A DNA stretch of 56,265 bases. It comes from Nanobdellota archaeon (lineage in GTDB: Archaea; Nanobdellota; Nanobdellia; Parvarchaeales; Parvarchaeaceae). A program made the translations under genes and the position numbers. Shown here in pieces: positions 9,256 through 45,238 of the stretch (the first letter of the stretch is position 1; each line of letters opens with the position of its first letter). The stretch covers positions 1 to 56,265 of the forward strand of contig JAJYWD010000004.1 in the NCBI GenBank assembly GCA_021791655.1, in the 5' to 3' direction. Under the pieces are notes generated by a model. It saw only the letters and a list, made by a program, of their open reading frames with translations, did no database searches and had not been told where the DNA came from.

Positions 9256-10176
9256 ATGTCCAGCATTTTTACAATATTTGGTATAACATTTTCCGGCTTT
9301 TTATCTGGTCTTGTATTATCATTCGTGCTAGGGCTGCTTCATGGCGTGACACCAGACGAGCACACCTGGCCGATAACGTTTTCGTATGCGGTTGGCAGTT
9401 ACAGTACTCGGGCTGGTGCAGAAGCCGGACTAGTTTTTTCGCTTGGGTTTACGATCGAAAGGGCCGTCCTCTCCGAAATTTTCTATATCATCTTATCAGC
9501 TTCTTTGGGGGGGGTCGCCTCGTTTTTGCAATCTGCACTATTCTTCGGCATCGTCTACGTTTTTGTCGGATTCGCCATGGCGTTTGCAGGCTATTACATA
9601 AAATATGGTAATTGGTATCCACATATAGAACTGGATCGCTTGGTGAATCTACTAAATAAGGGGTCTAAACACGAATCTACAGATTTTTACAAAAAGAAAG
9701 TGCCGATAAAAATGGCGATAGTGCACGGATTAATCGCAGGTTTCGGCATGGGTGCCTTTGCCTTTATACTATTCTTTACAGTTGTGCCATCGATGCCAAA
9801 CGTGTATGTGGGTTTCCTGCCAGGTGCTTTGTTTGGAGTGGGCACTATGATCGCCCAGATAGGATTTGGTGCGGTTTTCGGAAAATGGATAACCAGCGTA
9901 AAAAGAATAAACAAGCGTGGATTGGAATTCGTAGCCAGGTACATATCTTCGTCTATTCTTTTATATGGCGGAATAATTTTTGTGATAGCTGGCCTTGCCG
10001 TGGTGATGTTTCCTCCGCTTTTGTCCTTTGGTATAGCTACCGGGGTGCGTGTACCAAATTTAGACTATATCGATATCGGGTTCATTTTGGTGGTAATCGT
10101 CGTAGTGGCGCTGGGTGTTATATCCTATTTAAAGGCAATAAGTATAGCATCTAAAAAATTTAGGGTCCCTGACTGA
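9256..10176 (+). CDS. NicO/UreH-like membrane transport protein (metal transporter-like)
   Basis: LGLLHGVTPDEHTWPITFSYAVGSYSTRAGAEAGLVFSLGF; multiple TM segments. Confidence 0.55.
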   Translation: MSSIFTIFGITFSGFLSGLVLSFVLGLLHGVTPDEHTWPITFSYAVGSYSTRAGAEAGLVFSLGFTIERAVLSEIFYIILSASLGGVASFLQSALFFGIVYVFVGFAMAFAGYYIKYGNWYPHIELDRLVNLLNKGSKHESTDFYKKKVPIKMAIVHGLIAGFGMGAFAFILFFTVVPSMPNVYVGFLPGALFGVGTMIAQIGFGAVFGKWITSVKRINKRGLEFVARYISSSILLYGGIIFVIAGLAVVMFPPLLSFGIATGVRVPNLDYIDIGFILVVIVVVALGVISYLKAISIASKKFRVPD

Positions 10177-10189
10177 AAACCGGTGCGTA

Positions 10190-11947
10190 TCACAATCTTA
10201 TTTTTTCTATTCTGCATTTTCCTGGTGGAAGCAATTTGTCTATTTCAGTGGCATCTATCTGTATAAAATAGCGTTCCGCGATCTTCTTAGTTATATCCTT
10301 TATTACAGTGTTTCTGTCCCGTCTACCCGGTCTTATCAGTATGTATTTTTCGCCCGCCCTATATGGGGTGGAGTATGCGTCATATCCGTTATCAGAAAAA
10401 CTGAAGTTTATGAAAATCGCCAAAGGCGCGTTTTTCACGTAGTCCCTATTCCCTTCTATGAAGAATGCACCCTTCTTCAAGGACTCTCCAGATGGGGGCG
10501 TGCTGGTAACCTGTTTGGGTAGGACGAAGTACACATCTGTATTGGATTCACCTGCCTTCCACGCCGAAGAATAAGACGCTGCAAAGGTTGCCACTTCATT
10601 CTTCATTTCATCATCGAGCGTTTCCGTCCCTTTTACGAGACAAAAAGGACTTCCAAATACGTCTGCGTGCGCTATCAAATCGCCGTTCTCAGCGTGCTTT
10701 TTTATAAGAGCCTCGTTTTGATAGGTATCCCGCCCCGCTACGACAAGCCTCCCGCTCGTTGTGAAGAACCATCTATACTTGGAATACCATGCGTCGGTCT
10801 GCTTCTTCTCCAATCTTCTCAGCGTTTTATGAGCCGCGCCGGACTTGGACTTTATCTCCCTTTTTACCCTTTTGATTTTGGTGTAATATTCGGCTATGTT
10901 CTGGTTCAGGTCCTTGGTGATATCGAGTTCAATGTCATTTCCCGTCGCGAATACAAGTTTCTTACCTTGTAGAGTCCAGCCTAGTTGCTTTAGAGTGACT
11001 AATCTTTCATCCAGCGGCAGGTTTGAATCCTTGCTTATTCTGATGACGTTTTCGATATCTAGATATTTGTCGTTCAAGAATTTTGAGACGATTTCGTATC
11101 TCTTAACAAGTTCCCCCAGAAGCGCAACTTTCTTGTCGCTCTTAGTCTCAATTTTCTGGGTTTCCTGCGAGTATAAAGAATTCAGGGCTGTTGCTATGCT
11201 GTCGAAATACTTTTTATCACCGCCGATGTGTGTCATTTCACAGGAGAAGAAACCGTATTGATTTATTACGTTTGGCCTTTTCTCTCTTATGATCTCAGTA
11301 AGTCTTTTATAAAGCTCATCTGACATTTCTGCGTTTAATTCGCTCATCTTTGCTGTCTTTTCTACTTTCGCCCTGAAGCACACTTCCTCCGCGTAGTTTC
11401 CCCCGAGAAGCAGATCTACTGCGAGCGCCTTGACCACATTTTCTCTTTTTGAATTGAGTAGGAGGTTCTTGAATGATGATGGCGAGAGCGCGAAAATGTC
11501 TGGTCCTGGCGCTGGATAAGAATACTTTTCCCCAGAGGCGACTCTCCTGGAGCCGTATTTCCTGGTGAAAAGCGACATAAGTATGTTGCTGTCCTCTGTA
11601 AGCACGATGTTGCCGTTCGAGAAAAGCTCGGCTATGAGCTTTGTTCCATCGAAGGAAAATTCGACAATCCTATCGGAGCCGTGCATTTGTATCTGTATCC
11701 TTCTGCCTGATAGCTGCTTTTTGACAAATAGCGTGAACGGAAAATCAACAGTGTCCTCTGGTTTCTCATTATGAAGCAGAATAGCTTCTCCTGGGATTAT
11801 TTCTAGCCAGTACTCTTTATGCGCGAATATTAGTAGGTAAAATTCGTTCTTTCTGCTCTTTATATTCCTAACTACGCCGCCATCGAGGAAAGAGAGCTCG
11901 TCGACAAATTTCCTCAAGTCGAGGAAATTTAGCGGTGTCCTCCGCAT
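10190..11947 (-). CDS. rqcH: RqcH/NEMF family ribosome quality control protein
   Basis: N-terminal NFACT-N-like domain, coiled coil, C-terminal NFACT-R-like (KYRWFFTTSGRLVVAGRDTYQNEALIKKHAENGDLIAHADVFGSPFCLVKG). Confidence 0.85.
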   Translation of the reverse strand: MRRTPLNFLDLRKFVDELSFLDGGVVRNIKSRKNEFYLLIFAHKEYWLEIIPGEAILLHNEKPEDTVDFPFTLFVKKQLSGRRIQIQMHGSDRIVEFSFDGTKLIAELFSNGNIVLTEDSNILMSLFTRKYGSRRVASGEKYSYPAPGPDIFALSPSSFKNLLLNSKRENVVKALAVDLLLGGNYAEEVCFRAKVEKTAKMSELNAEMSDELYKRLTEIIREKRPNVINQYGFFSCEMTHIGGDKKYFDSIATALNSLYSQETQKIETKSDKKVALLGELVKRYEIVSKFLNDKYLDIENVIRISKDSNLPLDERLVTLKQLGWTLQGKKLVFATGNDIELDITKDLNQNIAEYYTKIKRVKREIKSKSGAAHKTLRRLEKKQTDAWYSKYRWFFTTSGRLVVAGRDTYQNEALIKKHAENGDLIAHADVFGSPFCLVKGTETLDDEMKNEVATFAASYSSAWKAGESNTDVYFVLPKQVTSTPPSGESLKKGAFFIEGNRDYVKNAPLAIFINFSFSDNGYDAYSTPYRAGEKYILIRPGRRDRNTVIKDITKKIAERYFIQIDATEIDKLLPPGKCRIEKIRL

Positions 11948-14471: not shown

Positions 14472-15629
14472 GTGTCTACATCAAAAAGATCAATATTAAT
14501 CGTAGTGGTTGTTGTAGTAATCGTTATAATAATTTTCTTCTTAATGCAGATAATAAACCCTTCATTTTTAAATTATTTTATATCTCTTCCAAGTAGTACG
14601 ACGCCACCAAGGATTACGACTACCGTAGCGCCTTCCATAATCGCCAACATCTCCGTAGGGAAATCTCCAAACTACGCGACTTACGACCCGAGCAATAATT
14701 ATGTATATGTTATGAATGCACTGTCCGGCACAGTCTCAGTGTTAAGCGGTACCTCCGTAATCGCCAACGTCACGATAGGCGGTCAACCAAGCTTTGCAAT
14801 CTATAACCCCAGCAATAATTATGTATATGTCACAAATGGACGGTATATGGTCTCTGTACTAAGCGGCACTTCCATAATCGCCAACATTTCCGTAGGGCAC
14901 ATCCCAAACTCTGCTACTTATGATCCTATCAATAAATACATATATGTCCCGAATTTGTTGTCCAATACGGTCTCAGTAATAAACGGCACTTCTGTGATTG
15001 CCACCATCCCAGTAGGGAACGCGCCGTACGGTCCGGTCTATGACACTGTAAACGGATATATTTATCTAATAAATCAAAAGGATGACACGGTCTCAGTAAT
15101 AAACGGCACTTCTGTGATTGCCACCATCCCAGTAGGAGCTAGTCCAAGTTCCGCTGCTTATGACCCAAACAATGGGTATGTGTATGTCACAAACGCTGGC
15201 TCTAGCGCGGCTTTTGGTACCGTCTATATATTAAATGGTACTTCTGTAATTGCCAATGTCACGGCGCCAGACGGCAGCCTACCCTCCCTTGTAATCTATA
15301 ACTCTCACAATCACTATGTATACGTCGCGAATTTTAACTATGAAACTGTCCCCACCATCATCTCAGTGTTCAAAGGTACATCTGTAATCGCCAACGTCAC
15401 AGTAGGGACGGGGTTGGTTTCCATAACTTACGATGCTAGTAACGGTTACATATATATCCCGAATAGCCTGTCCAACACGATATCAGTGTTAAGCGGCACC
15501 TCTTTAATTGACAACATTAACTTAGCGGATTCAATGTATTCACTTTATAACCCTAGCAACGGTTATTTATATGTAACTACATACTCCTACTCCTCAGAGG
15601 TAGGCACAGTCGCTGTGCTAAGGGTATAG
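14472..15629 (+). CDS. Membrane-anchored YncE-like beta-propeller (NHL/YVTN repeat) protein
   Basis: GTG start, N-terminal TM. Repeats of about 41 aa: GTSVIANVTVGG.PS.AIYNPSNNYVYVTN...TVSVL. Confidence 0.8.
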   Translation: MSTSKRSILIVVVVVVIVIIIFFLMQIINPSFLNYFISLPSSTTPPRITTTVAPSIIANISVGKSPNYATYDPSNNYVYVMNALSGTVSVLSGTSVIANVTIGGQPSFAIYNPSNNYVYVTNGRYMVSVLSGTSIIANISVGHIPNSATYDPINKYIYVPNLLSNTVSVINGTSVIATIPVGNAPYGPVYDTVNGYIYLINQKDDTVSVINGTSVIATIPVGASPSSAAYDPNNGYVYVTNAGSSAAFGTVYILNGTSVIANVTAPDGSLPSLVIYNSHNHYVYVANFNYETVPTIISVFKGTSVIANVTVGTGLVSITYDASNGYIYIPNSLSNTISVLSGTSLIDNINLADSMYSLYNPSNGYLYVTTYSYSSEVGTVAVLRV

Positions 15630-16494: not shown

Positions 16495-18204
16495 ATGAAT
16501 CGTATATATTACGGACAGACAGACAGAAAAATTCTACTAATCAATTCTAAACACTCACAATCCGCCCTCGAGTACATGATGACCTACGGCTGGGCCATCC
16601 TTATCATAGTGATAGTCGCTGCATTGCTTTATTCGCTCGGCATTTTCAATCCGGCCTCTTCCGTAACGGCCGTAGTTGTTACCGGTTTAAGCGGGTTAGG
16701 TGCCCCGCAGGCGGTCTGTCTTCCCAACGGCGTTATGTTGTTACAGTTAGGAAACAGTGTGGGCAGGGTTATAGAGATAACTAGGATAAACGCCATTACA
16801 CAACAAGAGATAACGCAGACTACAACACCGGAAGAAGCGGTACAACCGTCATATTCGCGCGTTTTCTTTATACCTTCCATTTGCCCTCTGCATACAGGAG
16901 AACGTTTTTCTCTGAATGTGGTAGTTACCTACACGGAACCTGGGCAAGTGTTTCCTGGGCCGTACACGTCTTCTGGGACTGTATATGGTGCGGTGGCAGC
17001 TTCAAATCAGAGCACTGTGACCTTCGTTGAAAGTGGCTTACCATATCTGTATCCATGGGCAGTGATTTATAACGGAATAAAATATTTATCCACTAGCCAG
17101 AATATAACAGCCCCTCTTTCGTCATCAGGCAACTCTTCCCTGTTGTTTTCTGTCAGCCCTATTCTGAATAGTAGCGGCATATACAATATAAATCTAACAC
17201 CTTCTCCCGCTTCTGGAAGAGTTGACAGTTACGTTGTTGATGTAACTTTTTCTGGTACTGCGCAGCAGAATACAATTTATGTACCAGGTGAGTTTTCTGG
17301 TGCGGTGTACGCCATAAATACTACTTCATATGCCGTTACTTACATAAAGTTTGGCGGGCATTACAGTGTCATAAATGGGACTCGATACTATCCTAGCTTT
17401 CCGCACGGCGCTGGCATAAGCCCAAATGGAGCGCTAGTTTATGTCGGGAATCGCACAGATTCGGATCTTTTAGTAATAAATACCGCAACAAATTCAAACG
17501 TGTCGTTTTCGACAGTGCCGGGTATAAGTTCTCCCCTGTACACATATGTGCCACCAAGTGGAAACACTGTTTACGAGGCAGGTGGAAGTTATATGGAGGA
17601 AGTTTCACTATCTACAAACACCTTGACTAATACCATATCAGGTTTCTGCAGTGCACACGACTTTAGTGTAATGTCTAACGGTAACGGATATGTGGCTTAT
17701 GTACCGAACGTGGGATGCAGTTCTGTTTCCGTTGTCAATCTGACATCAAATACTATAGTAACGACTGTGACCGGATTCCGGTGCCCGCAGAGCATTGCCA
17801 TTACGCCGAATGGGAAATATGCGTATGTCGTAAACCGAGGCTGCGTCGCTGGCAGTGGTATACTATCTAACGTGTCAGTGTTGTCAACATCTACGAACAA
17901 AATAATAGATGTTATACCTGTAGAGTATGGCCCGACGTTCATCGTGATTCCGTCTAATGGTCCTGCTGGCGGAAAGTACGGCTATGTTACTAACTATGGC
18001 AATAATACCGTTTCTGTGATACAACTCTCGAGCAATAGCGTAATATCTAATATCCCCGTGTGCGGAGCTCCGCATAGAGAGCAGTTTTCCGAGGATGGAA
18101 AGACGCTGTATGTCACGTGCCGTAGCGGATACGTTGACGTTATAAATACAGCCACCAACAGCGTTATAGAAACTATAGCTCTGCCTTATTACTACGGCGG
18201 ATAA
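16495..18204 (+). CDS. Class III signal-peptide/pilin-like N-terminus fused to YVTN beta-propeller
   Basis: HSQSALEYMMTYGWAILIIVIVAALLYSLGIFNP; YTEPGQVFPGPYTSSGTVYG; C-terminal propeller repeats (YAYVVNRGC, YGYVTNYGNNTVSVIQLSSNSVISNIPV). Confidence 0.82.
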   Translation: MNRIYYGQTDRKILLINSKHSQSALEYMMTYGWAILIIVIVAALLYSLGIFNPASSVTAVVVTGLSGLGAPQAVCLPNGVMLLQLGNSVGRVIEITRINAITQQEITQTTTPEEAVQPSYSRVFFIPSICPLHTGERFSLNVVVTYTEPGQVFPGPYTSSGTVYGAVAASNQSTVTFVESGLPYLYPWAVIYNGIKYLSTSQNITAPLSSSGNSSLLFSVSPILNSSGIYNINLTPSPASGRVDSYVVDVTFSGTAQQNTIYVPGEFSGAVYAINTTSYAVTYIKFGGHYSVINGTRYYPSFPHGAGISPNGALVYVGNRTDSDLLVINTATNSNVSFSTVPGISSPLYTYVPPSGNTVYEAGGSYMEEVSLSTNTLTNTISGFCSAHDFSVMSNGNGYVAYVPNVGCSSVSVVNLTSNTIVTTVTGFRCPQSIAITPNGKYAYVVNRGCVAGSGILSNVSVLSTSTNKIIDVIPVEYGPTFIVIPSNGPAGGKYGYVTNYGNNTVSVIQLSSNSVISNIPVCGAPHREQFSEDGKTLYVTCRSGYVDVINTATNSVIETIALPYYYGG

Positions 18205-36158: not shown

Positions 36159-36242
36159 TGGACCGGGAGGGATTTGAACCCTCAGCCTCCGCCATTTTCG
36201 ATATCTTGCGAAAGCGGCGTCATGCCGTTAGACCACCGGCCC
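36159..36242 (-). tRNA. tRNA-Ala(CGC) with a 12-nt intron (36195-36206)
   Basis: GGGCCGG/CCGGTCC acceptor with G3:U70; CCGCT-TTCGCA[AGATATCGAAAA]T-GGCGG; T-arm GAGGG-TTCAAAT-CCCTC. Confidence 0.85.
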
Positions 36243-37821: not shown

Positions 37822-37902
37822 ATGGCAGGCAGCCGCGGATCGCGATCCGCTCTCAGTAAAAGGAAACGTATTAAACCGAGAGAGTACATAGTGATGGTAT
37901 GA
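37822..37902 (+). CDS. Putative 26-aa basic leader peptide overlapping the next start codon
   Basis: MAGSRGSRSALSKRKRIKPREYIVMV*. TGA overlaps ATG of the pilin-like gene at 37899 (ATGA). Confidence 0.3.
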   Translation: MAGSRGSRSALSKRKRIKPREYIVMV

Positions 37903-38900
37903 AGCCGGGGTCCTCCGTATATATTACAGACAGAAAAATTCTAGCAGACAAAAAATCCCAATCCGCCCTCGAGTACATGATGACCTACGGCTGGGCCATA
38001 CTCATCATAGTCATAGTCGCAGCCGTCCTCTACAGCCTGGGTATATTCAACCCCACCTCCTTCGTAGCCACCGAATCAGTCAGCGGATTCGCAGGATTAG
38101 GCAGCATACAGGCGCAGTGCTCTGCCGGGGGTTTAGAAATGAGCATAGGCAATGCAGTCGGGTCTTTGATAAATATAACGGATGTAAACGTCACCCTGAA
38201 CGGGCAGACGTACATAAACCAGATTTTCCCCGATTATTCCTCGTATCCGAGCGCGTATCTCATCTCCCCCGATCAGGAGAGTTCATTCATACTGAGAAAT
38301 GCATGTCCTAATTCAACCGGAAGGTTTTCAGAGACCGTGACGCTCGCGTATAAAGAGCCGGGCCAAGTATTCCCGGGACCTTATCAATCCACCGGCACCA
38401 TATCCGGCAATTCTGTACGCCAGTACGGAAGCCAGGATCTTATAATCGTTCCAGATTACCTAGGCACTGATAATGGTTCAGGCGGTTGGAGCGACAATCA
38501 GTATGGTTCCTGCCTAGTACAAACGGTAATCCCCGCCTCAAATGGGTTTTTGGGCTCTAAAGTAGAGAGCTTCATTGGACCCGCTTCATGTGGATCTAAC
38601 GGTGGAGGTGGTAATCGTGCATGGGCTATATCTGGAGTACAAACCGCACAATTTGAGAATACTACTCCTCCAACCACCTATCTGATTTCGTTCTATTACC
38701 GTTCTAACGTTTCTATCTGCGTTAACGATCGTGATATGTGTATCAAATCAATACCAGCCAATACAGGCAATGCAGAATATGTCCAGGTTCCTTACACTCC
38801 TACATCAAGTTACCACCCAGGTGGCGATGATTTATTGCTTTATAGTGGCGTCGCCAGTTGGTTCCAGGTCAATCGACTACAAATACTGACCAGTGGATGA
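37899..38900 (+). CDS. Class III signal-peptide (pilin-like) surface protein
   Basis: KSQSALEYMMTYGWAILIIVIVAAVLYSLGIFNP; YKEPGQVFPGPYQSTGTISGNSVRQ linker; unique C-terminal domain. Confidence 0.8.
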   Translation: MKPGSSVYITDRKILADKKSQSALEYMMTYGWAILIIVIVAAVLYSLGIFNPTSFVATESVSGFAGLGSIQAQCSAGGLEMSIGNAVGSLINITDVNVTLNGQTYINQIFPDYSSYPSAYLISPDQESSFILRNACPNSTGRFSETVTLAYKEPGQVFPGPYQSTGTISGNSVRQYGSQDLIIVPDYLGTDNGSGGWSDNQYGSCLVQTVIPASNGFLGSKVESFIGPASCGSNGGGGNRAWAISGVQTAQFENTTPPTTYLISFYYRSNVSICVNDRDMCIKSIPANTGNAEYVQVPYTPTSSYHPGGDDLLLYSGVASWFQVNRLQILTSG

Positions 38901-39388: not shown

Positions 39389-39844
39389 ATGGCAAAGTCA
39401 CAATCCGCCCTGGAATATCTTGTAACGTACGGCTGGGCGATACTCCTGATAGTGGCAGCGATAGCGATACTTTATGCGCTGGGATTTTTCAATCCGTCAA
39501 GCTCCATCTACAAGACCACGGTGATATCCGGATTTTCCGGCGTAAAAGTAGCCTCCGCATTTGCGAATTCATCCATTTTCCAGTTCGATGTACTGAACGA
39601 GGCGGGTGTTTCGGTTTCTCTGATAAATTCTACTCTTACGATAGACAGGCAGAATTACACGTCAATAACGTGCACGGACATGTACATTTCAAACGGCCAG
39701 AACTCCCCATGCAGCCTGTCCATAGCTCTTGGGAACGGGACGGAGGTGAACGCAGCGCTGTACATTTTTTACCAGGTCCCGATAACGGATAACTCGTTCA
39801 GGACGCTGGAATCCGTTGGAAGGCTGACCGTTCCTGTCTCGTAA
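39389..39844 (+). CDS. Class III signal-peptide small pilin-like protein
   Basis: KSQSALEYLVTYGWAILLIVAAIAILYALGFFNPSSS. Confidence 0.8.
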   Translation: MAKSQSALEYLVTYGWAILLIVAAIAILYALGFFNPSSSIYKTTVISGFSGVKVASAFANSSIFQFDVLNEAGVSVSLINSTLTIDRQNYTSITCTDMYISNGQNSPCSLSIALGNGTEVNAALYIFYQVPITDNSFRTLESVGRLTVPVS

Positions 39845-39857
39845 TCTATACTTATTT

Positions 39858-40973
39858 ATGGTCAGGTCTGCGAAAAGTGTTATGGGGCAATCGATTCCTC
39901 GTGATAAAAAGTCCCAGTCAGCCTTGGAATACATGATGACCTATGGGTGGGCCATCATGATAATAGTCATAGTTGTAGCTGTCCTCTACAGCCTTGGGAT
40001 TTTCAACCCATCTTCGTCAGTCCCTAGCACGACGGTCGTAGGTTTCGGCGGGTTAAACGGCATTACGGGAGAGTGCCTGAGCAACTCCGGCCTGGTAATG
40101 CAGGTTGGCAACATAGAGACTTACAACATAAATATAACGGCCGTCAATTACACCATAAATACCGGCAGTTACAGCATATCTCCCAATAGCAAAACATCGG
40201 AGATAACTCCCGATGGCACTACCTTCCTGATTCTTCCGAGCGCGTGCCCCGCAGCCGGCGACCGCTTCAGCGTTTATGTGTCTATAACTTACATTGCCAT
40301 CGGCGAACCGCTGGCGACGCCAACCACGACTTCGGGCACCATAAGCGGCACGGCTATAAGTCAAAAATACGTCGGGAGTTTTGACGGGTCGACTTCTTAC
40401 ATACAAATAAACAATATCAATCTCGGAAACACAATAACAGTAAGCTTTTGGGCGAAGGGTTCGAATTATGACGGTAGAATACCGTTCTCTGTCGACAGCA
40501 ACTTATACGGGACTTTGGGACCGGATGTATATTTTGCATGCGGCATGATAAACTGGAATAAAGGAAATGGCTGTGTTAACAATTTCTCAAGCAGTTCTTA
40601 TCCCAATTCAAACTGGCATAACTTTGTTGTAGTAGACTCGTATTCTGGGAGTTCTGCTAAGTTATACGTTGATGGTAAGTATGTCGGGTCTGCCGCTTCT
40701 TACTTAGACCCAACTTCGACCAATCGCTTTATAAGAATAGGTGCATACGCTGCCGGCGGTTATTATTTTCCGGGTGACATGGCGGGAGTAACCGTTTACT
40801 CTGTCGCATTGTCAAGTTCGCAGATTTCTACTGTATATAGCGGAGGGTTCGGCGGAGCACCGGTGTTGGATGCGGGTCTCGTGGGTTGGTGGCCGTTGAA
40901 TGATAACGCTCTTGATTACAGCGGGATCGGTAACACGGGCGTGGCCACGGACGTAAGCTGGGTCGCCACGTAA
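39858..40973 (+). CDS. Class III signal-peptide LamG surface protein
   Basis: KSQSALEYMMTYGWAIMIIVIVVAVLYSLGIFNPSSS; LamG-like YVGSFDGSTSYIQINNINLGNTITVSFWAKG...WHNFVVVDSYSGSSAKLYVDGKYVG. Confidence 0.85.
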   Translation: MVRSAKSVMGQSIPRDKKSQSALEYMMTYGWAIMIIVIVVAVLYSLGIFNPSSSVPSTTVVGFGGLNGITGECLSNSGLVMQVGNIETYNINITAVNYTINTGSYSISPNSKTSEITPDGTTFLILPSACPAAGDRFSVYVSITYIAIGEPLATPTTTSGTISGTAISQKYVGSFDGSTSYIQINNINLGNTITVSFWAKGSNYDGRIPFSVDSNLYGTLGPDVYFACGMINWNKGNGCVNNFSSSSYPNSNWHNFVVVDSYSGSSAKLYVDGKYVGSAASYLDPTSTNRFIRIGAYAAGGYYFPGDMAGVTVYSVALSSSQISTVYSGGFGGAPVLDAGLVGWWPLNDNALDYSGIGNTGVATDVSWVAT

Positions 40974-41132: not shown

Positions 41133-43331
41133 ATGGGACAAGAACTTGCCGGCGGTAGGATCACCCTTGACCAATTTCTGGAGAACGATGAGTGGTGGGA
41201 GCACAACTTCAAGGACACGTCCCAATTGCCCCTTGCATTCCTGCGTAGCCAGTCAGATCGGGCTGCAGACGTACTATTCGAATATGACCCTTACAATAAG
41301 GTGGTGGGGCACGAAAAAGAGAAGGCGGCATCTAGAGCGGCGATTAACGGCGTAATAAAAACATACCAATACATAAGAAAGCGCTGGAAGGAACTGAGCG
41401 ATGCCGGCTTTAAGGAGAACGATCCTCCGGGAAATTGTATAATAGACATCATTCGCGAAGAGGTGCCGCCCATGCCGATGTTCATAAGGATAGGCGATTA
41501 CGGCAGCAGTAAGTCCCTGCAGCAAAAGTGCGAGGAAGAGTTTCTTTTTTCTGAGAGGAAAAAATACGGATTGACTGGATATGACTATATAACGAGGCCG
41601 GACAAGGAGTCCCCGTTAAAGTTCGTGCTTGAACAGAAATCTGCCCCTCTCGGTCAGGAGGAAGTCGCTAAACATTTCGAAAAGAAAGCTAGGCGCTCTG
41701 CTATAAAGAAAGGACTGAAGCTTGCTACCATACTCGGTGCGGCCGGAGCGATGACAGCAGCGTTCGTAGATTTCATAGTTCAGTGGTGGAGCATAGCGCA
41801 GTTTTTCGGTTATGACGCCCTGGAATGGGTGGTGGGTAACCTGATGGGCGAATTACCGTACGTTGAGAGCACGGTAGTGATAGCCGGCATTCCTGCCGGT
41901 TTGGCGCTTGCTAACAGTTTCCTGCACAAGAACGAAAGCAAGGACCCGAGCTTATTGTCTACCGGTAACGAGATGACCACGCCGTACGTCGGTCACGAGA
42001 CGGTCGGCAACCTGAGGGGGGAATACATGTACAATCTAGACGTCTCGCCACAGTTCAAGTTGAAGTTGGGCGATATACTAAAAGCTAATGAAAAGATCTT
42101 CGTGATAGAAAACTTGCACTCTCTTCCTGGCGACGTGCAAAAGAATCTCTCTCAGATAATAGAAGAGAAAACTCTGGACGTGGCCGATTTGCCGAGGGAG
42201 TACAGAAAATTCGTATACACGCTAATATCAGCCAGCATAAACACGGAGAAGTTGCCCCTGATAATAGAATCACTGCAGAACAGGATAAATTACGCGGACA
42301 TCCAGCACGTTATGAACGACATAACTAGGGACGAAGAAGTGGTTTATGAACTGCCGGATACCAAGACATCTATAGCGATAGATACTGGCGGAGGGACCAA
42401 GAGAAACCTCAAGAATGAGAGGCATCTGGCGTTGCTGTTGGCCGATATAGTTGATCGCGTCGGTGGAAGACCGTGGAGCAAGGACGCATATGGGGAATTC
42501 GTTGATTACTGTTCAAGGCTTGCCGATAGCTCTAATGAGTTGCACATAAGCAGGCGCGTAATACGACTGCCAAAGAAAGCTGAAGAGTTTGCGGAGATGG
42601 AGCACAGCCCTTACGTTAAGCCGCAACACGTACTAATGGCGGAGAAGGAATCCAAATCGATTACTCAGTTGGTAATGAGCAAGAAGCTACAGGATTATAC
42701 TATCGAACAGAACGTCTCTCTTAGTGGCGATGCAAAGATCGGTAGGGTCAACGTGCTTTTGAGTTATCACGACGATTTGCTTAAGGGTATGGAGCAGGGC
42801 ACGCCTAAAGAAATCTATGACTACATACAGACGGAAGACTATGTGGGATATGTGGTGCCAATAAATGCATTAGCAAAGCGTGTCAGAGGAAAAGGATCCA
42901 AGCTTGAGATAATAACTAAAGACAAGACGATTGACAGAGAGAACCTTAAGAACTCTCTAAGAGCCTTATTCCTGAGAGAGAATGTCGATCTTGACAAATA
43001 CCAGATATTCGTTTCTGTCCCCTCACTGAAAGACGACGAAGCGATTCTTGGCGGCGCTTACTCCGCGGTTCGTTCCGCCGTAAGTGGCAAGCCGATCAGG
43101 CAGGACGTTTGTCTGGCCGTAAAGCTTTCAGAGACCGGCGATATAACGTCTTTGCCGAGACTGAACTCTCGACTGTTTTATTTGTCGGGAGCGCCGAAAG
43201 TGATAGTATCAACTCACGATATGAAAAGCAAGGTTGAAGATCCAAGCGGGAGATCTTTGTACAAAGACATAAGTTTCAAACCTACCCAGTCACTCAAGGA
43301 ACTTAACGAATACATTGAGGGAACCATATGA
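41133..43331 (+). CDS. Divergent LonB-like AAA+ membrane protein with substituted protease catalytic residues (pseudo-LonB)
   Basis: LonB order: degraded Walker A GDYGSSKS, TM insertion, TPYVGHETVGNLRGEYMYNLD, degraded Walker B KIFVIENLHSLPGDVQKNLSQIIEEK, protease-domain KDDEAILGGAYSAVRSAVSGKPIRQDVCLAVKLSETGDI. Confidence 0.7.
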   Translation: MGQELAGGRITLDQFLENDEWWEHNFKDTSQLPLAFLRSQSDRAADVLFEYDPYNKVVGHEKEKAASRAAINGVIKTYQYIRKRWKELSDAGFKENDPPGNCIIDIIREEVPPMPMFIRIGDYGSSKSLQQKCEEEFLFSERKKYGLTGYDYITRPDKESPLKFVLEQKSAPLGQEEVAKHFEKKARRSAIKKGLKLATILGAAGAMTAAFVDFIVQWWSIAQFFGYDALEWVVGNLMGELPYVESTVVIAGIPAGLALANSFLHKNESKDPSLLSTGNEMTTPYVGHETVGNLRGEYMYNLDVSPQFKLKLGDILKANEKIFVIENLHSLPGDVQKNLSQIIEEKTLDVADLPREYRKFVYTLISASINTEKLPLIIESLQNRINYADIQHVMNDITRDEEVVYELPDTKTSIAIDTGGGTKRNLKNERHLALLLADIVDRVGGRPWSKDAYGEFVDYCSRLADSSNELHISRRVIRLPKKAEEFAEMEHSPYVKPQHVLMAEKESKSITQLVMSKKLQDYTIEQNVSLSGDAKIGRVNVLLSYHDDLLKGMEQGTPKEIYDYIQTEDYVGYVVPINALAKRVRGKGSKLEIITKDKTIDRENLKNSLRALFLRENVDLDKYQIFVSVPSLKDDEAILGGAYSAVRSAVSGKPIRQDVCLAVKLSETGDITSLPRLNSRLFYLSGAPKVIVSTHDMKSKVEDPSGRSLYKDISFKPTQSLKELNEYIEGTI

Positions 43332-45238
43332 CAGACGACCAGAATCAGTCTGACGCCGAAACGGCTTACAAAAGCGCGGGAAAGGGTTTAGACCTGGGCG
43401 GTCTGCTATACCTTGAGTTGGACTCTAAACGACTAAGTCGCGCCCTTCGCTCTATTTATAGGGACGGGGAGAGACTTGGGAATCTGGCGGGATTTGCAGT
43501 AAACGCACCCTTGCCCGGCGCCGCATCAATAATAAATCACGCGTTGCCGGAGAAAATCATCGGCGGCAGCAGCTGGGTGTGGAATTCATCAATATTCAAC
43601 AACAGCGGTCTGGAAGCCGAATTGCACGAATATTCCCACGCACTCACGAATAACATACTTTTTGATCCCACCCTCCATCAGAATGTCCAGGTGTACGTAA
43701 ATAATGTACTTAGTAATACCACTGTCCCGATAGGCAGCGTGCCTTATTCTCAGCTAGGTCTACCCCCGGCAGTCTGGAGCGTGACTAACAGCATGTGGGA
43801 AAATTTCGCGAGCGAATTTCACAGCTCTGGATTATTCAAGGCGTTGTTGGACCTTCTAGATGGTAAAGACACGCAGGTCCTTCCAGGTTCTACCAATGCG
43901 ATAGGCGAGTTCCAGTTCTTCAGCCCAGATAAGCTTGTGTGCAACGGCATGATTGTACCGGTACAACAGGGCCAGCAAATAGTGCCACAACCGATAATAG
44001 ACCCAAGCTCTTGCGTGCTTCATACGCAGACCCACGCGCTCGGCTCCGTACTTGGGGAATTCAATGACAATATGCTGGTCTTCGCAGGCGGGACCATGGG
44101 AGAAATGATATTCCTTGGCCTTACTCCCTATCTTATCGGTAGGATGGTGAAAAAGAAGTCGCCTTTCGCCGGAGGCTTCGCACAGATGTTCTCGTTCGGA
44201 TCTTACATGAACGCGGTTTTCTATCCTGTCAACAGTGCTATAGACTGGACCAGAGGAAATACTTCGTACGGTGGCGACTGGCAGGCGATAATGCAGTATA
44301 CTGGTGTAAACCCGTGGCTGCTTGCGGGCACTGTTGCCGCAATTTATCCGACTGCGGTATTGGGATTATACCTCAGGGATAAGCGCAACAGGGAAGCGGA
44401 AGCCAGGAAGGGGGCGCTGGAACGACTGCTGTCTACTGATATGGTGGCAGTAGAAAAAGTGGACAAGCTCATAGCCAATTATGGCTCAGAAATACCGCGA
44501 AAAGCAATAAATCTCCCGAAAATAGGCAGACTAGAAATGAGCGAGCTACCTTTGGTAGACAAAGTGCTCAAGTTGCGTAGTAGCAAGAAAAAAGACAGCT
44601 TGTCGCGTTACAAAATATCCGGATACGGCAGCCTCGAGGAGAGCAAGTCTGCCCTGATGGAACAACTGGAAGCCGCCGAGACCGTAGTGCAGAAGATAAA
44701 GATAAAGAGAGAAATCAGAAAACTCAAGAAGGTAAGAAAGTCAGTACTTGACCACGTTTTAATGGATGAAGACTTGGGCGCAGCAGCTGACAGAGAGGCT
44801 AAAGTCTATGGCGTGTTATCAGACGGATACTTGGATTTCAAATACGACCCGGATGGATTCTCTAGAAATTTGGAGGACAAGCTAAATGCCCAAAAAGTCA
44901 ACATGCTGTCAAAACTTGTTTCGTACGTTACAAAAGGCAGGATCGGCGCGGAAAGAGAGCAGCCAGAACCGTTCACAGTGGATCAGGAAGGTTTGAGAGA
45001 TAGACTATCTGAATATTACGAAAATCCAAATCAACCGGGCCTTTCCGTGATTTATGGTGGGGGCGCAAAGAGGGCTCTTGCCGGCCCGGAACTAGACAGG
45101 CCAGAAAAGCTGCGCAGACTTAGCACTCTTCAGAGCCTGCTTTTGTGCGTTACTGACAATGCCGAGGCCGCTTCGCTGAAAAAAGAAGTAAATTCCTTAA
45201 GAAAGGATTTGGGCTTAGAAAACATATCCTTGTCTTAG
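43328..45238 (+). CDS. Membrane protein with HExxH motif (putative zinc metalloprotease), overlaps pseudo-LonB
   Basis: AELHEYSHALTNNI (HExxH); several TM segments; long charged C-terminal region; ATGA overlap at 43328-43331. Confidence 0.55.
   Translation: MTDDQNQSDAETAYKSAGKGLDLGGLLYLELDSKRLSRALRSIYRDGERLGNLAGFAVNAPLPGAASIINHALPEKIIGGSSWVWNSSIFNNSGLEAELHEYSHALTNNILFDPTLHQNVQVYVNNVLSNTTVPIGSVPYSQLGLPPAVWSVTNSMWENFASEFHSSGLFKALLDLLDGKDTQVLPGSTNAIGEFQFFSPDKLVCNGMIVPVQQGQQIVPQPIIDPSSCVLHTQTHALGSVLGEFNDNMLVFAGGTMGEMIFLGLTPYLIGRMVKKKSPFAGGFAQMFSFGSYMNAVFYPVNSAIDWTRGNTSYGGDWQAIMQYTGVNPWLLAGTVAAIYPTAVLGLYLRDKRNREAEARKGALERLLSTDMVAVEKVDKLIANYGSEIPRKAINLPKIGRLEMSELPLVDKVLKLRSSKKKDSLSRYKISGYGSLEESKSALMEQLEAAETVVQKIKIKREIRKLKKVRKSVLDHVLMDEDLGAAADREAKVYGVLSDGYLDFKYDPDGFSRNLEDKLNAQKVNMLSKLVSYVTKGRIGAEREQPEPFTVDQEGLRDRLSEYYENPNQPGLSVIYGGGAKRALAGPELDRPEKLRRLSTLQSLLLCVTDNAEAASLKKEVNSLRKDLGLENISLS

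What the first reader, a model, noticed from the sequence alone, without database searches (positions are those of the whole stretch)
43328..45238. HExxH membrane protein translationally coupled to pseudo-LonB: candidate two-component proteolytic system
The start overlaps the pseudo-LonB stop (ATGA). The protein has HEYSH in a membrane context, a later GGDWQ segment that could supply a third ligand, and a roughly 260-aa charged cytosolic tail. A dead AAA+/Lon scaffold coupled to a membrane metalloprotease would be a split unfoldase/protease arrangement analogous in logic to FtsH. I know of no described equivalent.
Basis: inference. Interest (0 to 1): 0.85.

Follow-up and report, generated by a model that had tools for sequence, protein, structure and literature searches.

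The report
Dead-LonB partner with swapped outer domain
A catalytically dead relative of the archaeal protease LonB is nearly always encoded next to a small membrane protein, and in this one archaeon that partner has kept only its docking tail and gained an outward-facing domain with a possible metalloprotease motif, which probably cannot work as the proposed FtsH-like unfoldase-protease machine.

Summary
The ORFs, the ATGA overlap and HEYSH are real. Gene A (41133-43331) is a degenerate LonB paralogue. In all 9 full-length copies Walker B DE has become EN and the Lon catalytic Lys has become Arg, while 20 genuine LonBs, including this genome's own, are intact. The gene pair is conserved: all 8 other full-length A genes, and a fragment in another family of the phylum, are followed at once by a membrane-protein gene B. 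However, B elsewhere is a 235-264-aa protein without HExxH. The window's 636-aa B shares with it only the last ~45 residues (22 bits; best of 2000 shuffles 6.6). HEYSH lies in a 173-aa segment with 4 Lys and no Arg, like pilin ectodomains here and unlike any cytosolic segment tested. It is predicted to face outside, whereas LonB AAA+/protease domains face the cytoplasm, which argues against a split FtsH-like machine. A's own transmembrane segment has diverged specifically in the window lineage. Best reading: a conserved pseudo-LonB/membrane-adaptor complex whose adaptor ectodomain was replaced here. Whether the new domain is a protease is open: no homologues were found and structure prediction failed.

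The parts
41133..43331 (+). Gene A: pseudo-LonB, 732 aa (N-terminal region, degenerate AAA+ with two inserted transmembrane helices, degenerate Lon domain)
   Evidence: TIGR00764 LonB E 5e-9, PDB 3k1j LonB E 3e-14 from the family profile, orthologues in 7 other genomes of the genus
41493..41516 (+). Walker A of A: GDYGSSKS; Lys127 invariant in the family, the Gly before Lys is Ser here
   Evidence: alignment with 20 LonBs
41658..41918 (+). Transmembrane segment of A (aa 176-262), unusually diverged in the window lineage
   Evidence: 20/42 clade-invariant columns kept vs 329/417 elsewhere, Fisher p 3e-5; hydropathy
42108..42113 (+). Walker B of A: Asp-Glu replaced by Glu326-Asn327
   Evidence: EN in 9/9 A proteins, DE in 20/20 LonBs
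43032..43040 (+). Position of the Lon catalytic Ser: GDS replaced by DDE (aa 634-636)
43170..43172 (+). Position of the Lon catalytic Lys, replaced by Arg680
   Evidence: Arg in 9/9 A proteins, Lys in 20/20 LonBs
43328..45238 (+). Gene B of the window: 636-aa membrane partner, start overlapping the A stop (ATGA)
43478..43540 (+). B candidate helix TM1 (aa 51-71), weak
   Evidence: hydropathy and charge
43553..44071 (+). B predicted extracytoplasmic domain (aa 76-248): 4 Lys, 0 Arg in 173 aa
   Evidence: fewer K+R than any of 3897 windows of cytosolic genes (minimum 12)
43625..43639 (+). HEYSH (aa 100-104)
43799..43819 (+). ENFASEF (aa 158-164), candidate third metal ligand Glu158/Glu162 of a gluzincin
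   Evidence: ligand role inferred
44072..44140 (+). B helix TM2 (aa 249-271), followed by the basic stretch KKK
44165..44236 (+). B helix TM3 (aa 280-303)
44270..44284 (+). GGDWQ (aa 315-319), predicted on the extracytoplasmic side
44312..44377 (+). B helix TM4 (aa 329-350)
44378..45235 (+). B cytosolic charged tail (aa 351-636)
   Evidence: K+R 18.5%
45095..45229 (+). Conserved C-terminal docking tail of B (aa 590-634), homologous to the C-terminal helical hairpin of canonical B
   Evidence: HMM, HHalign and shuffles; whole-genome search E 6.4e-4 at this place; helical hairpin in the canonical B model, pLDDT about 75-88

Best explanation
A and B form a two-gene accessory membrane complex. A, a LonB paralogue that has lost ATP hydrolysis and proteolysis, is the cytosolic/membrane scaffold, presumably a LonB-like ring. 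B is a membrane adaptor held by its conserved C-terminal helical hairpin and by helix-helix contacts in the membrane. In the window lineage the membrane/outer part of B was replaced or rebuilt into a (probably four-helix) protein with a ~173-aa outward-facing domain, the docking tail was kept, and the membrane segment of A changed with it. The complex most likely tethers or senses envelope proteins and presents them to, or withholds them from, the genuine LonB. HEYSH may make the new ectodomain a surface metallopeptidase scaffolded by A, but A does not feed it substrates as an unfoldase. Shown by sequence: pair conservation, loss of the catalytic residues, tail homology, lineage-specific HExxH. 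Inferred: topology, ring formation, docking, function.
For: Pair: A and B adjacent in all 8 other full-length loci and in the G362 fragment; in 96 whole genomes no confident B without A; gene neighbourhoods otherwise differ between species, so the unit is self-contained. A dead. Tail homology: 15.5 bits as a domain, 22.1 for the tail alone, maximum of 2000 shuffles 6.6; it is also the best hit of the canonical-B profile in the whole own genome. Derived state: the window's A nests beside three species with canonical B, 84/99 support. Co-change of A's membrane segment. Outward ectodomain. A genuine LonB is still present in the same genome.
Against: No direct evidence of an A-B complex, a ring or any activity. 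G032 has a split A without B. Only one species carries the HExxH form, so its domain cannot be tested for conservation. Topology rests on charge and hydropathy; the AF2 model of the N-terminal 400 aa is unusable (pLDDT 33). Faster divergence of A's membrane segment is also seen more weakly in G020 (p 0.02).
Confidence: 0.6

Rival explanations
1. One reading: A is a dead AAA+/Lon scaffold and B a membrane metalloprotease that together form a split FtsH-like unfoldase/protease.
For: Overlapping genes and a conserved pair; HEYSH with candidate third ligands.
Against: HExxH absent from all nine other partners; HEYSH predicted extracytoplasmic while LonB domains are cytosolic; A lacks the Walker B Glu.
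Confidence: 0.05
2. B of the window is an active extracytoplasmic gluzincin-type metallopeptidase (HEYSH plus Glu158 or Glu162) that processes surface proteins, with A only anchoring or clustering it.
For: HEYSH followed 54 residues later by ENFASEF; E.FA.[ED] occurs once in 44,404 residues of the compared ORFs; ectodomain-like composition; pilin-like genes lie directly upstream.
Against: No family or PDB match, no homologues, the ENFASEF pattern was chosen after seeing it, no usable structure.
Confidence: 0.25
3. A is a regulatory pseudo-subunit that co-assembles with genuine LonB (mixed rings) and B tunes this; the HEYSH in the window's B is a chance motif in a sensor domain.
For: LonB is present in the same genome, and A retains the Walker A Lys, the sensor-1 Asn and the Arg of the ESLxNR motif; canonical B has no HExxH.
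Against: No evidence of contact with LonB; A has diverged strongly from LonB (long branch).
Confidence: 0.3

Closest known systems
Archaeal LonB (MEROPS S16, TIGR00764; e.g. PDB 3k1j)
   Same: Gene A has the same order AAA+ / inserted two-helix membrane segment / LID / Lon domain, and matches by profile
   Different: Walker B DE->EN and Lon Lys->Arg in every full-length member, catalytic Ser lost; paired with B; an accessory paralogue beside intact LonB
LonC, Lon-like proteases without ATPase activity (PMC3391209)
   Same: Lon-family protein that lost canonical AAA+ motifs and ATPase function
   Different: LonC keeps an active protease domain and has no membrane helices; A has lost both functions and keeps LonB-type membrane helices
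FtsH (AAA+/M41) and its HflKC regulators (own knowledge)
   Same: Logic of a membrane AAA+ assembly with a membrane partner
   Different: FtsH has AAA+ and zinc protease on the same cytosolic side in one chain; here HEYSH is predicted outside and A is dead
Membrane metallopeptidases: M50 site-2 protease, M48 HtpX; soluble gluzincins with HExxH...E (own knowledge)
   Same: HExxH, a membrane-anchored chain and possible downstream acidic ligands
   Different: No profile match; HEYSH is not in a hydrophobic helix; third ligand unproven

Membership tests
LonB protease | LonB-type AAA+ and Lon domains with membrane helices inserted in the AAA+ module | tested here: met
   Profile matches, though far below NCBIfam's curated cut-off; two hydrophobic helices at aa 195-215 and 244-264
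LonB protease | Walker B Asp-Glu for ATP hydrolysis | tested here: not met
   EN in 9/9
LonB protease | Ser-Lys catalytic dyad | tested here: not met
   Lys->Arg in 9/9; Ser not retained in the window's A
FtsH (AAA+/M41) | Active AAA+ fused to a HExxH protease on the cytosolic side | tested here: not met
   Separate genes, Walker B lost, HEYSH predicted extracytoplasmic, no Pfam or NCBIfam match
M50 site-2 protease | HExxH inside a transmembrane helix plus a downstream NxxPxxxxDG-type motif | tested here: not met
   HEYSH segment not hydrophobic; no Pfam match, also with the loop excised
Gluzincin metallopeptidase | HExxH plus a downstream Glu ligand in a zincin fold | tested here: inconclusive
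   HEYSH and ENFASEF present; fold not obtainable, pLDDT 33
Canonical B partner family (defined here) | Gene directly 3' of pseudo-LonB | tested here: met
Canonical B partner family (defined here) | C-terminal helical hairpin with conserved Asn, Arg and Gly | tested here: met
Canonical B partner family (defined here) | Two-helix membrane core with NxxPxGxLP and RAPxSY-like motifs | tested here: not met
   No detectable match outside the tail

The most novel reading that the evidence does not exclude
A conserved archaeal pseudo-LonB acts as a docking platform for interchangeable membrane partners, recognised by a short C-terminal hairpin; in this lineage it has captured an outward-facing metallopeptidase domain, giving a protease assembly that spans the membrane with a dead AAA+ ring inside and a zinc protease outside.
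Probability: 0.15. Interest if true: 0.8.

Novelty: new variant of a known kind. Interest (0 to 1): 0.5.

Why it matters
A double-dead LonB paralogue that is maintained, almost always paired with a dedicated membrane partner, and compatible with a change of that partner's outer domain while the docking tail stays, would be a new example of a pseudo-enzyme turned scaffold in archaea, in a lineage with very small genomes. It offers a short, testable docking element and a clear prediction about which side of the membrane each part is on.

Tried and rejected
Searched for relatives of the window's B in 95 near genomes, 382 phylum genomes, GTDB contigs, viral contigs, phages and plasmids: none. The weak phylum hits (E above 0.003) are short; the one inside the genus (G016, L040) was read and has no HExxH. 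Pfam, NCBIfam, PHROGs, PADLOC and PDB sequence searches gave nothing for B. AF2 of B 1-400 without an alignment was unusable. The canonical B model (pLDDT 67) has no convincing fold match. Recent horizontal transfer of B was considered and is not supported by codon usage, which equals that of native genes. Misassembly is unlikely because A, the ATGA junction and the homologous tail are in one continuous stretch and frame. A viral origin of the A-B pair: no viral contig matches. Two paper searches for a described pseudo-LonB in these archaea gave nothing relevant.

Full report
Observation. The window carries gene A (41133-43331, 732 aa) and gene B (43328-45238, 636 aa) overlapping as ATGA. B has HEYSH at aa 100-104, ENFASEF at 158-164, GGDWQ at 315-319 and a charged tail from aa 351. 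The ORF is coding: codon usage matches native genes in both halves and drops in the shifted frames. HExxH by itself is expected about 0.01 times in a protein of this length and is present in 5 of 156 ORFs of the compared loci, so it is suggestive only.

Gene A is a dead LonB. It matches LonB profiles weakly (TIGR00764 E 5e-9, far below the curated cut-off), and the family profile finds the LonB structure 3k1j (E 3e-14). Aligned with 20 genuine LonBs of the phylum, including this genome's own, all nine A proteins keep the Walker A Lys but have Walker B DE changed to EN and the Lon catalytic Lys changed to Arg. The catalytic Ser is not consistently retained: in the computed alignment only G004 has Ser at that column, and a gap-free reading by eye would leave Ser only in G027 and its near-duplicate L057. 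A should therefore neither hydrolyse ATP well nor cleave peptides; residual ATP binding is possible (inference).

The pair is conserved, the HExxH is not. A occurs in 8 of 28 genomes of the genus held here, in one further near-identical record (L057), as a split gene in G032 and as a contig-edge fragment in G362 of another family. In every full-length case, and in G362, the next gene overlaps or abuts A's stop and encodes a 235-264-aa protein with two predicted helices. The B-family profile finds G362's partner at 57 bits and finds no confident B without A in 96 genomes. None of these nine partners has HExxH. Flanking genes differ between most species, so the two genes travel as a unit; G032's split A has no B beside it.

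The window's B is a partner of the same slot with a different body. The canonical B profile matches only aa 590-634 of the window's B (15.5 bits; the tail alone 22.1 bits against a maximum of 6.6 in 2000 shuffles; HHalign agrees). Searching the whole own genome with the same profile puts this tail first (E 6.4e-4). The invariant Asn, Arg and Gly of the tail are kept. In the canonical B model the tail is a helical hairpin, the best-predicted part of the chain. No match exists for the rest. The tree of A places the window beside G020, G024 and G012 (84/99), inside a set in which all others have canonical B, so the HExxH form is most simply derived.

Scaffold and partner may have changed together. 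Among columns where the three sister species agree, the window's A matches in 20 of 42 within its membrane segment (aa 176-262) and in 329 of 417 elsewhere (Fisher p 3e-5). The same test is not significant for G024 or G012 and is weak for G020 (p 0.02). This is what replacement of the membrane part of B would predict if A and B touch in the membrane.

Topology. The segment aa 76-248 of B, which holds HEYSH, has 4 Lys and no Arg (2.3% K+R). Pilin-like ectodomains in this window have 3.2-3.5% K+R, two cytosolic enzymes 15-17%, and none of 3897 windows of the same length in cytosolic-type genes has fewer than 12 K+R. With KKK after TM2 and a basic tail after TM4, the predicted order is in / TM1 / HEYSH domain out / TM2 / in / TM3 / GGDWQ out / TM4 / tail in. 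TM1 is weak; without it the HEYSH domain would still be outside. LonB ATPase and protease domains face the cytoplasm (PMC4343526). HEYSH and A are thus on opposite sides, which disfavours an FtsH-like unfoldase feeding a protease.

Is the new domain a protease? HEYSH followed 54 residues later by ENFASEF resembles the layout of gluzincins (HExxH...E, own knowledge); E.FA.[ED] occurs once in 44,404 residues of the compared ORFs. But the pattern was chosen after seeing it, there are no homologues to test, no profile match, and the single-sequence AF2 model is meaningless (pLDDT 33). I give about 0.25-0.3 to a working peptidase.

Verdict. The conserved finding is the pseudo-LonB/membrane-partner pair with a docking tail; the HExxH is a one-lineage modification of the partner.

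Noticed in passing
L011/L051 (G032), 9603-11602 (-) of L051: In G032 the pseudo-LonB is split into two overlapping ORFs, has no B partner, and the next gene on the same strand is an M50-like site-2 protease (HEIGH).
   Followed up: partly
L047, L050, L051: In three species (G006, G013, G032) the pseudo-LonB lies within roughly 2-6 kb of a proteasome-subunit-like gene, perhaps an ancestral location.
   Followed up: no
window 16495-18204, 37899-38900, 39389-39844, 39858-40973: Several pilin-like genes with a shared N-terminus (SQSALEYMMTYGWAILIIVIV-like) and divergent ectodomains; three lie directly upstream of gene A.
   Followed up: no
window 36159-36242 (-): ARAGORN calls a tRNA with a four-base anticodon (agat), probably a false positive or an unusual tRNA.
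   Followed up: no
window 14472-15629: Predicted surface protein of repeated NGTSVIA...YVTN beta-propeller-like units.
   Followed up: no
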